Assembly: GCA_016182605.1 (NCBI GenBank)
Contig: JACPGE010000008.1
Coordinates: 99,014 to 163,013, forward strand
DNA: 64,000 nt
Reading direction: 5' to 3'
Origin: Candidatus Hydrogenedentota bacterium
GTDB lineage: Bacteria > Hydrogenedentota > Hydrogenedentia > Hydrogenedentales > JAEUWI01
Both the position numbers and the translations under genes were made by a program. Below are positions 492 through 3,309 of the stretch, one piece after another; positions within the stretch are counted from its first letter, which is position 1; every line of letters begins with the position of its first letter. The notes below the pieces were generated by a model, which did not search any database, had not been told where the DNA came from, and was given only the letters and a program-made list of their open reading frames with translations.

Positions 492-520
492 TTGACAAAA
501 GAACCGAGATACAACATAAT
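492..520 (+). promoter_or_regulatory. Strong sigma70-type promoter for the AAA ATPase operon
   Basis: TTGACA at 492-497, a 17-base spacer and CATAAT at 515-520 give a near-consensus promoter about 50 bases upstream of the ATG at 572. The -10 box lies inside the left arm of the 511-558 inverted repeat, so a protein bound to the repeat would block RNA polymerase. Promoter identity is read from sequence; regulation is inferred. Confidence 0.7.
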
Positions 521-558
521 TGTTGCGCAACCAACATGTTGCGCAACAATTATGTTGT
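511..558. repeat. Perfect 21-bp inverted repeat, probable operator
   Basis: The left arm 511-531 and right arm 538-558 are perfect reverse complements separated by CAACAT. Each arm contains the palindrome GTTGCGCAAC (522-531 and 538-547), so the site has two palindromic half-operators 16 bases apart. It covers the -10 box and the start of the transcript, and ends 13 bases before the ATG, just before the ribosome binding site AAGGG (561-565). It could act as a repressor operator or as a leader hairpin. Confidence 0.75.
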
Positions 559-571
559 GAAAGGGTAAGTC

Positions 572-1783
572 ATGGGCGTTAATCTAGTCTCCGGTAGCGT
601 ACCACGCGGAAACGACTATTTCGGACGCGAAGCCTTCATCGAGAATCTCTGGCAACTTCTGGACAAAAACAACGTGCTACTGGTGGCGCCCCGGCGTTAT
701 GGAAAGACAGGCGCCATGTATCAATTGCTGGACCACCCCCGATCTCCCTATGTTCCCGCTTACATGAACGTAGAGTATCTCGAATCGGCAGGGGACTTTA
801 TGATCGAACTCATAGCCACCCTGCGCCGGGATCGGCATATGGCAAGGTCCGTAAATGCCCTCTGGGAGGGAGCCAAAGGAATGGGCCACTATCTACGCAA
901 CCTGGCCTCCGATATCGAACTTGGCGACCTTAAGGTCAAATTGCGCGAAGAAACGGACATCGCCAAGAACTGGCTCGATTATGGCTCGCGCATCCTCGAA
1001 CTACTCGCCCAAGAGAAATTTAACGCCCTCCTGATCATTGACGAATTTCCCTTCATGGTCCATCACATCGCGAAACGGGACAAAGCCGAACTGAGCCGGC
1101 TGCTGCGGTGGTTTCGCGCTGCGCGCAACGCCCCCGGCACCCGCACGCGCTTCCTGCTCGGTGGTTCGATCAATTTGGTCAGCACACTCGACGAACTGCA
1201 TCTGGTCGACACAATCAATGATCTCTCGAGCATTCCACTGCTGCCATTCGATGCAGACACAGCCCATAAGTTCATCGAGTCCGCCATGGAAGCGCGGGAG
1301 ATCGCAGTTTCGCCCGCCACGCGCCGGCGGATCATCGATGCAATTGGATCCCCTGTGCCATACCTGTTGTGTGTCCTGATGACTGCACTATCCGATCGGC
1401 ACCGGCTCACCGGGAAGGCGATAACACCCAAGATGGTGGAACAAGTCTTCAGCCAAGAATTGATGGGGCGGGCCGCTCCCTACTTTTGCCATTACTACAC
1501 ACGGCTTGCGGAATACTACAACGACACGGAAGCGCGCCAGGCGAAGGCCGTCCTTGGACACCTCTCCAGGGCAGACCGGCCCATCGCGCGAGACAACCTC
1601 TACGGCATTTTTTTGCGCGCGACAAGTGAAAAGCCATCCACAGCAACGACAGAACGATTTCAGGCCCTCATGCTTCGACTAGAAAACGACTTTTATGTCA
1701 CCGCAACAGATGGTCACTACCACTTCTCCATTCTCGCTGTGCAGCTCTGGTGGAAAAACAACTACGGATTTCAGCATTCATGA
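572..1783 (+). CDS. AAA/ATPase_2-type ATP-binding protein, first gene of pair
   Basis: 403-aa soluble protein. The N-terminus YFGREAFIENLWQLL is the usual lead-in of archaeal-type/STAND-like AAA ATPases. A Walker A (APRRYGKTG, about residues 39-47) and a Walker B (ALLIIDEF, about 150-157) are both intact. A sensor-like segment (LLGGSINLVSTLDEL) follows, then a helical C-terminal half ending in a winged-helix-like FYVTATDGHYHFSILAVQLWW. AAGGG precedes the ATG. The stop overlaps the next ATG (ATGA), so the two ATPases are translationally coupled. No substrate can be named; signalling or defence-type P-loop proteins look like this. Function unknown. Confidence 0.75.
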   Translation: MGVNLVSGSVPRGNDYFGREAFIENLWQLLDKNNVLLVAPRRYGKTGAMYQLLDHPRSPYVPAYMNVEYLESAGDFMIELIATLRRDRHMARSVNALWEGAKGMGHYLRNLASDIELGDLKVKLREETDIAKNWLDYGSRILELLAQEKFNALLIIDEFPFMVHHIAKRDKAELSRLLRWFRAARNAPGTRTRFLLGGSINLVSTLDELHLVDTINDLSSIPLLPFDADTAHKFIESAMEAREIAVSPATRRRIIDAIGSPVPYLLCVLMTALSDRHRLTGKAITPKMVEQVFSQELMGRAAPYFCHYYTRLAEYYNDTEARQAKAVLGHLSRADRPIARDNLYGIFLRATSEKPSTATTERFQALMLRLENDFYVTATDGHYHFSILAVQLWWKNNYGFQHS

Positions 1784-3309
1784 GGGGGCCAGGCACGATC
1801 CACTACTACCGGCCTCAGCGCAGCAACCCGGAAGAACTGGAATCCATTCTCGTTGGCCGCGAGCCAATGCTCGAAGAAATGCTGACAAGCCTCGGCCGGT
1901 GGAGCCCAAAGGCCTCCCGAGACCATTTTCTACTTATCGGCCCCCGGGGTATTGGCAAGACGTGTGTGCTGCAAGTACTCGCGCATCGCATTCGCACCGG
2001 CTCCCTTCACGATAAGTGGCAGCCCATAGCCCTATCCGAAGAAGGATACGGGCTCCAGGGAGTGGCCGACATCCTGATTCAGGCGCTGGAGGGCCTTTTG
2101 GAACAGACTCCAGCATGTGACGAACGGGAGACCCTGCGCAAGCTGAAGGCCGATTCGGACGACCAACGCGTCTGCGATCTCGCGCTGGACGCCTTCCGCC
2201 GCTTCCATCGGAGCACGGGCCGCGGCATCGCGCTCATGCTGGAGAATCTGAATCGACTGCTCGATGAGCAATTCAGGCGCAACCGCCAGGCCCATCTACT
2301 CCGCAAGATACTCATAGAAGAGGACTGGCTCGTGCTCATTGCGACTTCCCCAACCTACGTGCAGGCCGTGACCGAAGCTGAGGAGCCGCTCTACGCTTTC
2401 TTCCACCAGATGTACCTCAACGAACTGACATCCAAAGAACAACTGGAGATGCTCAACCGGCTCGCACAGCACGAGAACAACACACAGGCCCAGGTCGATG
2501 TGCGGCGCTTCCGTCCCCGGGCACAGGCGCTCTACCACTTCACCGGCGGCAATCCCCGCCTCACGGTCATGCTTTATCAGATTATCGTTCATCAACAGAT
2601 CGACGACGTGCAACAGGAACTGACCGCGCTGCTGGATCAGTTGAGTCCCTACTACCAGGATTGCATGCGCGATCTTGCGCCCCAGGAACGGGCGCTTATA
2701 GAGTGTATGGCGCTGCTCACGGAAGGCTGCACGCCAACGGAACTGGCGAATGCGTCACGCATGGAGGCCAAGACCGTTCGCGCCCTCCTCACACGGCTGG
2801 AACGTGGGGGCTACGTGCGTCGCGAAGAGCGAAAAAAAAAGCAAACCGTTTACTTCCTCCCAGATCGTTTTTTCCGTATCTGGCACCAATTGGCCTGTTC
2901 GCGTGCATTAGGCGGACAAGTACGGTATCTGCTGGAATATTTTTCCATATGGTACGCCCCGCATGAAGAATGGGAGGCCGGACAGCAGGTGATATTGAAG
3001 CCATTTCACAGCGGTACGGGTGGAAACCATGTTGCTGAACGCAATGCAGCGTATATGGAAAGCTCCGAGTCCGTTTCAATCTTGCGCGCCGCGTTCGTCC
3101 GGCGAGACTTGGCATACGTGCGCGAATATTTGACGCATACAGGGCAGCATCCGATGGAGGGCGCATCTCTAATGGCGCCCTGCATTCTGGCCCTCAATTA
3201 CCTCGACTCCGGCCGGGACGACAGCATCCTCACCCGCTTGCATCCAGAGTTGCGGGAGGCGGTGATGTTGCTGGTCGATGCATATGACGGCAATATCGAG
3301 GCGGCATGA
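1780..3309 (+). CDS. AAA ATPase with C-terminal winged-helix domain, second gene of pair
   Basis: 509 aa from the ATG at 1780, chosen because it forms an ATGA overlap with the upstream stop; the ORF track's 1750 start would lie inside the previous gene. Walker A GPRGIGKT is at residues 54-61. A Walker B-like strand (IALMLENL) sits near residue 150 and has Glu-Asn where Asp-Glu is usual. A helical region leads to a winged-helix domain at about 303-360 (CTPTELANASRMEAKTVRAL, then GGYVRREERKKKQTVYFLPD). The C-terminal about 120 residues are helical and unassigned. The family resembles archaeal-type ATPases with wHTH modules. The role of the pair is unknown. Confidence 0.72.
   Translation: MRGPGTIHYYRPQRSNPEELESILVGREPMLEEMLTSLGRWSPKASRDHFLLIGPRGIGKTCVLQVLAHRIRTGSLHDKWQPIALSEEGYGLQGVADILIQALEGLLEQTPACDERETLRKLKADSDDQRVCDLALDAFRRFHRSTGRGIALMLENLNRLLDEQFRRNRQAHLLRKILIEEDWLVLIATSPTYVQAVTEAEEPLYAFFHQMYLNELTSKEQLEMLNRLAQHENNTQAQVDVRRFRPRAQALYHFTGGNPRLTVMLYQIIVHQQIDDVQQELTALLDQLSPYYQDCMRDLAPQERALIECMALLTEGCTPTELANASRMEAKTVRALLTRLERGGYVRREERKKKQTVYFLPDRFFRIWHQLACSRALGGQVRYLLEYFSIWYAPHEEWEAGQQVILKPFHSGTGGNHVAERNAAYMESSESVSILRAAFVRRDLAYVREYLTHTGQHPMEGASLMAPCILALNYLDSGRDDSILTRLHPELREAVMLLVDAYDGNIEAA

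What the first reader, a model, noticed from the sequence alone, without database searches (positions are those of the whole stretch)
492..3309. Two coupled AAA ATPases under a promoter overlapped by a perfect 21-bp inverted repeat
A near-consensus promoter (TTGACA-17-CATAAT) is embedded in a 48-base perfect inverted repeat containing two GTTGCGCAAC palindromes. It drives two translationally coupled ATPases, the second with a winged helix, beside an IS end. The second ATPase or an outside factor could bind the repeat. The pair resembles no standard housekeeping operon and may be a defence or signalling module.
Basis: partly seen in the sequence, partly recalled or inferred. Interest (0 to 1): 0.58.

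Follow-up and report, generated by a model that had tools for sequence, protein, structure and literature searches.

The report
Self-controlled ATPase pair with repeated operator
A two-gene pair of switch-like ATPases, found patchily in bacteria of about ten phyla, carries at its promoter a row of short mirror-image DNA sites that probably let the second protein shut off its own genes; what the pair does for the cell is unknown.

Summary
The perfect 21-bp inverted repeat (511-558) is three abutting 16-bp pseudo-palindromes (RCAACW-N4-WGTTGY); the two GTTGCGCAAC boxes are their junctions. They cover the -10 and start region of a TTGACA-17-CATAAT promoter. Downstream lie P1 (572-1783) and P2 (1780-3309), overlapping by ATGA. 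Relatives in about ten phyla keep the P1-P2 order and coupling, and nearly all carry a palindrome array at the promoter. The 16-bp periodicity is strong (mean lag-16 z 2.72 in 28 loci, -0.17 for 213 other genes). Site sequences drift (TTGCGCAA, TTGTACAA, TCGTACGA, AAGATA/TATCTT) while spacing mostly holds. P2 is a STAND/ORC-type NTPase with a MarR-like winged helix, often followed by TPR or HEAT repeats. Palindromes stay at several P2 genes without P1 and are missing in the one P1 lineage without P2. Best explanation: P2 binds the array and represses its own operon; P1 is its ATPase partner (P1-P2 fusions exist, though without the array). The cellular role is open: defence genes lie near a few relatives, but not here. 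No matching paper or family model was found. Judged a new variant of a known kind: STAND-type transcriptional switches.

The parts
492..520 (+). sigma-70-type promoter TTGACA-17-CATAAT
   Evidence: TTGACT-17-CATAAT stands in the same place relative to the array in relative L017
511..526 (.). operator unit 1, ACAACATAATTGTTGC, covers the -10 box
527..542 (.). operator unit 2, GCAACCAACATGTTGC, at the expected transcription start
543..558 (.). operator unit 3, GCAACAATTATGTTGT
572..1783 (+). P1, 403-aa STAND/ORC-type ATPase; Walker A APRRYGKT, Walker B IIDE (Asp157-Glu158 invariant in the family)
1780..3309 (+). P2, 509-aa STAND/ORC-type NTPase with a MarR-like winged helix; Glu-Asn at the Walker-B position; start overlaps the P1 stop (ATGA)
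2692..2859 (+). MarR-like winged helix of P2 (residues about 305-360), proposed operator reader

Best explanation
The locus is a self-contained, autoregulated two-gene switch. P2, a STAND/ORC-type NTPase, binds the three abutting 16-bp pseudo-palindromes through its MarR-like winged helix. The sites cover the -10 box, the start point and the early transcribed region, so P2 keeps the P1-P2 operon low. P1, a second ATPase of the same superfamily with an intact Asp-Glu Walker B, works in a complex with P2, whose own Walker-B position reads Glu-Asn and so may bind ATP without hydrolysing it well. When P2's C-terminal part (TPR or HEAT repeats in most relatives, a short helical tail here) meets its signal, nucleotide state and oligomerisation change, P2 leaves the DNA and the operon is induced. 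Shown by sequence: the operator, its conservation and periodicity, the near-strict pairing and coupling, the domain layout, and that the array is found with P2 rather than with P1 alone. Inferred: that P2 is the binder, that it represses, the P1-P2 complex, and the signal step. The cellular output is unknown; a stress or invader response is my guess, unproven.
For: Pairing: 27 of 30 P1 loci have a P2 homologue (in one a fragment) directly downstream, usually overlapping or nearly so; one more is cut by the contig end. Operator: units with at most 1 mismatch in 16 of 25 pair promoters, mean 1.08 per promoter against 0.0028 per control window; lag-16 z 2.72 (n=28) against -0.17 (n=213), p=5.5e-16, and 16 is the strongest lag; a matrix trained on five loci puts 9 of 23 held-out loci above the 99th percentile of controls. 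The array goes with P2: G000:C101 keeps P2 and a 16-bp-spaced array (TCGTACGA-N8-TCGTACGA) although P1 is reduced to a remnant of about 55 aa; P2 genes without P1 on Agrobacterium and Sphingobium plasmids have CAACA-N4-TGTTG-type sites; P1 without P2 (L022, L023) has none. P2 matches MarR_2 in 15 of 18 members and a solved MarR protein. P1-P2 fusions in three genomes argue that the two act together. P1 and P2 are homologous. In the sponge-associated group some units lie over the -35 box and spacer, which are not transcribed, favouring DNA over RNA; the window's leader RNA is not unusually stable (z 0.06).
Against: The fused P1-P2 genes (L065-L067) keep the winged helix but have no array. The most distant pairs differ: Moraxella L015 has longer palindromes at other spacings, L012 reads as 15-bp spacing by eye, L016 is unclear. 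Mycobacterium L079 shows no such array. In ORC and STAND proteins a winged helix need not be a promoter binder, and P1 also has one. Many loci are close relatives, so they are not independent and the p-values are too strong. P1 without P2 is a single lineage. There are no binding or expression data.
Confidence: 0.62

Rival explanations
1. The pair is an anti-phage defence system: P2's C-terminal part senses an invader product, P1-P2 assemble, and the operator only holds the system down until needed.
For: STAND/NLR-like folds including Avs3 among P2's structural matches; swappable TPR/HEAT regions; patchy distribution, 2 of 68 phylum genomes with a close pair; plasmid relatives beside Qat, a WYL regulator, type I restriction, Pycsar and AbiE.
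Against: No effector domain recognised in either protein; no PADLOC or NCBIfam defence model met; most neighbours are ordinary genes and no matched control was run; none in the window.
Confidence: 0.3
2. The array is read by an unlinked transcription factor, or by P1's winged helix, not by P2.
For: P1 also ends in a winged-helix-like fold; similar tandem units stand before a HicA-like gene and a tRNA on viral contigs, so other regulators can use such sites.
Against: The array persists where P1 is deleted and at P2-only plasmid genes, is absent at P1 without P2, and has no other exact copy in the genome; its sequence changes between lineages, as expected for a linked reader.
Confidence: 0.22
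3. The array is an origin- or iteron-like element for ORC-like loading by P1-P2 (replication or mobility), with promoter control secondary.
For: Orc1/Cdc6-type folds and regularly spaced repeats.
Against: The locus is chromosomal with no replication or partition gene next to it; Orc/Cdc6 family models are not met; units sit on canonical promoter elements in many loci.
Confidence: 0.07
4. The repeat acts as an RNA hairpin in the 5' leader (attenuator or translation control).
For: In L017 the stretch could form a very stable stem if fully transcribed (z -9.55).
Against: The window leader folds no better than shuffles (z 0.06); in L017 and the window the left part lies at or before the -10 box and is not expected in the RNA; in the L029 group units overlap the -35 box and spacer.
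Confidence: 0.04

Closest known systems
STAND-family transcription regulators (MalT of E. coli, PMC10427625; IniR of mycobacteria, PMC5760070)
   Same: AAA+/STAND NTPase joined to a DNA-binding part and a TPR-type sensor region; IniR's ATPase was likened to SSO1545, which is also a top fold match of P1.
   Different: In IniR the DNA-binding part is at the C-terminus, similar to SdiA, and it induces another operon. Here the winged helix is MarR-like, sits right after the ATPase core, the gene is paired with a second ATPase, and the sites lie on its own promoter.
MarR-family autorepressors
   Same: Winged helix with a basic or DxR-type wing; short pseudo-palindromic sites overlapping the promoter (family traits from own knowledge; similarity).
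   Different: P2 is a large NTPase, not a small stand-alone dimer, and the sites come as abutting 16-bp arrays.
Archaeal ATPases SSO1545 (2fna) and PABY2304 (2qen); Orc1/Cdc6
   Same: Closest solved folds of P1 (TM about 0.62) and, more weakly, of P2.
   Different: About 12-15% identity; no sign of an initiator role from context.
BREX ATPase BrxC and related (PMC12839542)
   Same: ORC/Cdc6-clade AAA+ core followed by winged helices.
   Different: BrxC is part of large multi-gene systems; none of those genes is here.
DS41_1 anti-phage protein (NCBIfam NF053860; DefensePredictor, PMC13092281)
   Same: Weak similarity of P2's winged-helix region to its C-terminal part (E 1.8e-4).
   Different: 20.6 bits against a cut-off of 370; not a member.

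Membership tests
STAND NTPase | AAA+-type NTPase core with Walker A | tested here: met
   P1 nSTAND1/AAA_22 and P2 AAA_16 hits, all slightly below curated cut-offs; AAA_16 in 17 of 18 P2 members; folds like STAND/ORC
STAND NTPase | GxP-type motif followed by a winged-helix domain | tested here: met
   GGNPRL 256-261, then winged helix about 305-360 in P2
STAND NTPase | C-terminal superstructure-forming repeats as sensor | tested here: inconclusive
   TPR in 11 and HEAT in 2 of 18 P2 members; the window's P2 has only a short helical tail modelled with low confidence
MarR-family regulator | MarR-type winged helix | tested here: met
   MarR_2 E 3.9e-5 in the window P2 (24.1 bits, cut-off 27), best 3.9e-10 in relatives, 15 of 18 members; solved MarR protein 3nqo E 9.5e-6
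MarR-family regulator | small stand-alone dimer with N- and C-terminal dimerisation helices | tested here: not met
   the winged helix is embedded in a 509-aa NTPase
MarR-family regulator | direct binding to palindromic operator DNA | not testable with these tools
   only indirect genomic evidence
Known anti-phage defence system | match to a PADLOC or NCBIfam defence model above threshold | tested here: not met
   one P1 relative hits candidate model PDC-S27 at 2.6e-8
Known anti-phage defence system | protection against phage | not testable with these tools
   needs a challenge assay
ORC/Cdc6 replication initiator | ORC/Cdc6 sequence family membership | tested here: not met
   ORC-CDC6-like Pfam 17.8 bits against 27; TIGR02928 12.3 against 181

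The most novel reading that the evidence does not exclude
An undescribed, widely spread class of paired STAND/ORC-type ATPases in which an NLR-like sensor protein uses its own winged-helix domain as the repressor of its operon, with a hydrolysis-competent partner ATPase setting the switch, and with operator sequence evolving while a 16-bp tandem geometry is kept.
Probability: 0.4. Interest if true: 0.7.

Novelty: new variant of a known kind. Interest (0 to 1): 0.52.

Why it matters
If right, it links NLR/STAND-type sensing directly to gene control in one protein pair: the winged helix that serves as a regulatory joint in other STAND proteins would here be the DNA reader. The conserved operator gives a simple reporter for finding what the sensor detects, and a sequence signature for finding the pair in unannotated genomes. 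Whether prokaryotic STAND proteins without an effector domain act in defence or in stress regulation would become testable.

Tried and rejected
Chance origin of the repeat: rejected. RNA hairpin: not supported in the window. DS-41 membership: far below cut-off; a family search in the phylum found only sub-threshold hits, none in this genome. Phage carriage of the pair: no P1 or P2 relative in viral contigs and no P1 relative in phage records. IS passenger: a simple scan found no terminal inverted repeats flanking the transposase, and the pair's promoter DNA has no second copy. Defence-island enrichment: aggregate neighbour scans gave few defence hits, and no matched control was run. Literature searches with STAND, winged-helix and operator terms, and a look into two papers, found no description of this pair.

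Full report
Setting. The window is C24:99014-163013 of a 6.76-Mb, 98% complete genome. The best relative of the pair comes from Candidatus Hydrogenedentota and belongs to the same order; only 68 genomes of the phylum are held. Upstream of the finding a transposase ORF ends at window position 293; from its sequence I take it for an IS1634/IS4-type DDE transposase (own knowledge; sequence). Downstream (from 3431) lie ordinary genes.

The observation. TTGACA (492-497), 17-nt spacer, CATAAT (515-520) is the best promoter match in the intergenic stretch. A perfect 21-nt inverted repeat with a 6-nt centre spans 511-558. P1 (572-1783) and P2 (1780-3309) overlap by ATGA.

What the repeat is. Read against relatives, the 48 bp are three abutting 16-bp pseudo-palindromes, ACAACATAATTGTTGC, GCAACCAACATGTTGC and GCAACAATTATGTTGT, of the form RCAACW-N4-WGTTGY, the middle one with one mismatch. 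The GTTGCGCAAC boxes are the joints. Unit 1 covers the -10 box, unit 2 the expected start, unit 3 the early leader.

Conservation. A scan of GTDB genomes gave 25 loci; three plasmids, one further locus of the phylum and the window make 30. P2 (once as a fragment) directly follows P1 in 27 of them; the exceptions are two Nitrospinaceae loci with P1 only and one locus cut at a contig end. The coupling is usually an overlap, 8 nt in many. Upstream of the pairs the array recurs with drifting sequence: L017 has TGCGCA cores at exact 16-bp steps; L018 two perfect units; L020 three near-perfect ones; Neomarinimicrobiota TTGTACAA; Bacteroidetes L041 a 16-bp-stepped AAGATA/TATCTT array. Autocorrelation at lag 16 averages z 2.72 in 28 pair promoters against -0.17 in 213 other upstream regions of the same loci (p 5.5e-16); 16 is the top lag. 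A matrix trained on the window group alone scores 9 of 23 held-out loci above the 99th percentile of controls. The loci are not independent: about a dozen are close relatives from environmental and symbiont genomes, so the p-value is only a guide.

Which protein goes with the array. In the same genome, C101 carries a P2 paralogue with TPR repeats; its P1 is cut down to a remnant of about 55 aa, yet the promoter keeps TCGTACGA-N8-TCGTACGA, again at 16 bp. P2 genes without P1 on Agrobacterium and Sphingobium plasmids have CCAACA-N4-TGTTGG-type sites. P1 without P2 has none. This points to P2. Against it, three P1-P2 fusion genes have no array, and a Mycobacterium P2-like gene has none.

The proteins. 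P1: weak nSTAND1/AAA_22 matches, confident model (pLDDT 90), nearest solved folds PABY2304 and SSO1545; Walker-B Asp157-Glu158 invariant. P2: AAA_16, a MarR-like winged helix in 15 of 18 relatives, TPR in 11, HEAT in 2; model pLDDT 78.6 with a poorly defined tail; nearest folds Orc1/Cdc6, PABY2304, NLR and Apaf-1 types and Avs3; a solved MarR regulator matches the winged-helix region. At the Walker-B position P2 reads Glu-Asn, the Asn invariant among 18. P1 and P2 are homologous (hhalign E 1.2e-9). By eye, the C-terminal ends of the window P2, L017, L019 and L020 share a stretch of the type ALxYLxSxRDxxILxRxHPExREA, so the window's short P2 looks like a form without repeats rather than a broken one (inference).

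Interpretation. An autoregulated switch: P2 binds the array through its winged helix and represses; P1 is the ATPase partner; a signal on the C-terminal part releases P2. The operator, conservation, pairing and domain layout are shown; binding, repression, complex and signal are inferred.

Role. The close pair is patchy (2 of 68 genomes). Some relatives neighbour Qat, a WYL gene, type I restriction, or Pycsar and AbiE; most neighbours are ordinary. Defence stays a rival at about 0.3.

Known work. IniR (PMC5760070) and MalT (PMC10427625) are STAND regulators with another layout. BREX ATPases combine an ORC/Cdc6 core with wHTH modules (PMC12839542) but in large multi-gene systems. No description of this pair was found in the searches made; the library lacks most subscription journals.

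Noticed in passing
L006:17266-17373 (about 1.6 kb upstream of the window): A stretch of about 105 bp has some 40 further copies at 75-96% identity scattered over the genome: a high-copy short repeat family.
   Followed up: no
G000:C101:242317-246152 (L007): A second P2 gene with many TPR repeats, preceded by an internally deleted P1 remnant and its own 16-bp-spaced array with a different core (TCGTACGA).
   Followed up: partly
L065, L066, L067: P1 and P2 fused into one long reading frame (about 1200 aa where complete) in three genomes of one genus, without the array.
   Followed up: partly
L075:859-890 (177-kb viral contig): Tandem units of the same kind directly after a TTGACT/TATAAT-like promoter, ahead of what looks like a tRNA gene.
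   Followed up: no
L076:566-597 (viral contig): The same tandem unit just upstream of a HicA-like toxin start (MKYSEFKKWLKKQGATF), suggesting that other autoregulated systems use similar sites.
   Followed up: no
L081:5893-8588 and L079:6001-7170 (Mycobacterium plasmids): A short P2-like protein (NTPase plus MarR-like winged helix, no repeats); in M. avium it is coupled to a serine/threonine kinase gene and has a 20-bp palindrome at its promoter.
   Followed up: partly
L022, L023 (Nitrospinaceae): P1 without P2, followed by a different gene of about 220 aa, and without palindromes.
   Followed up: no
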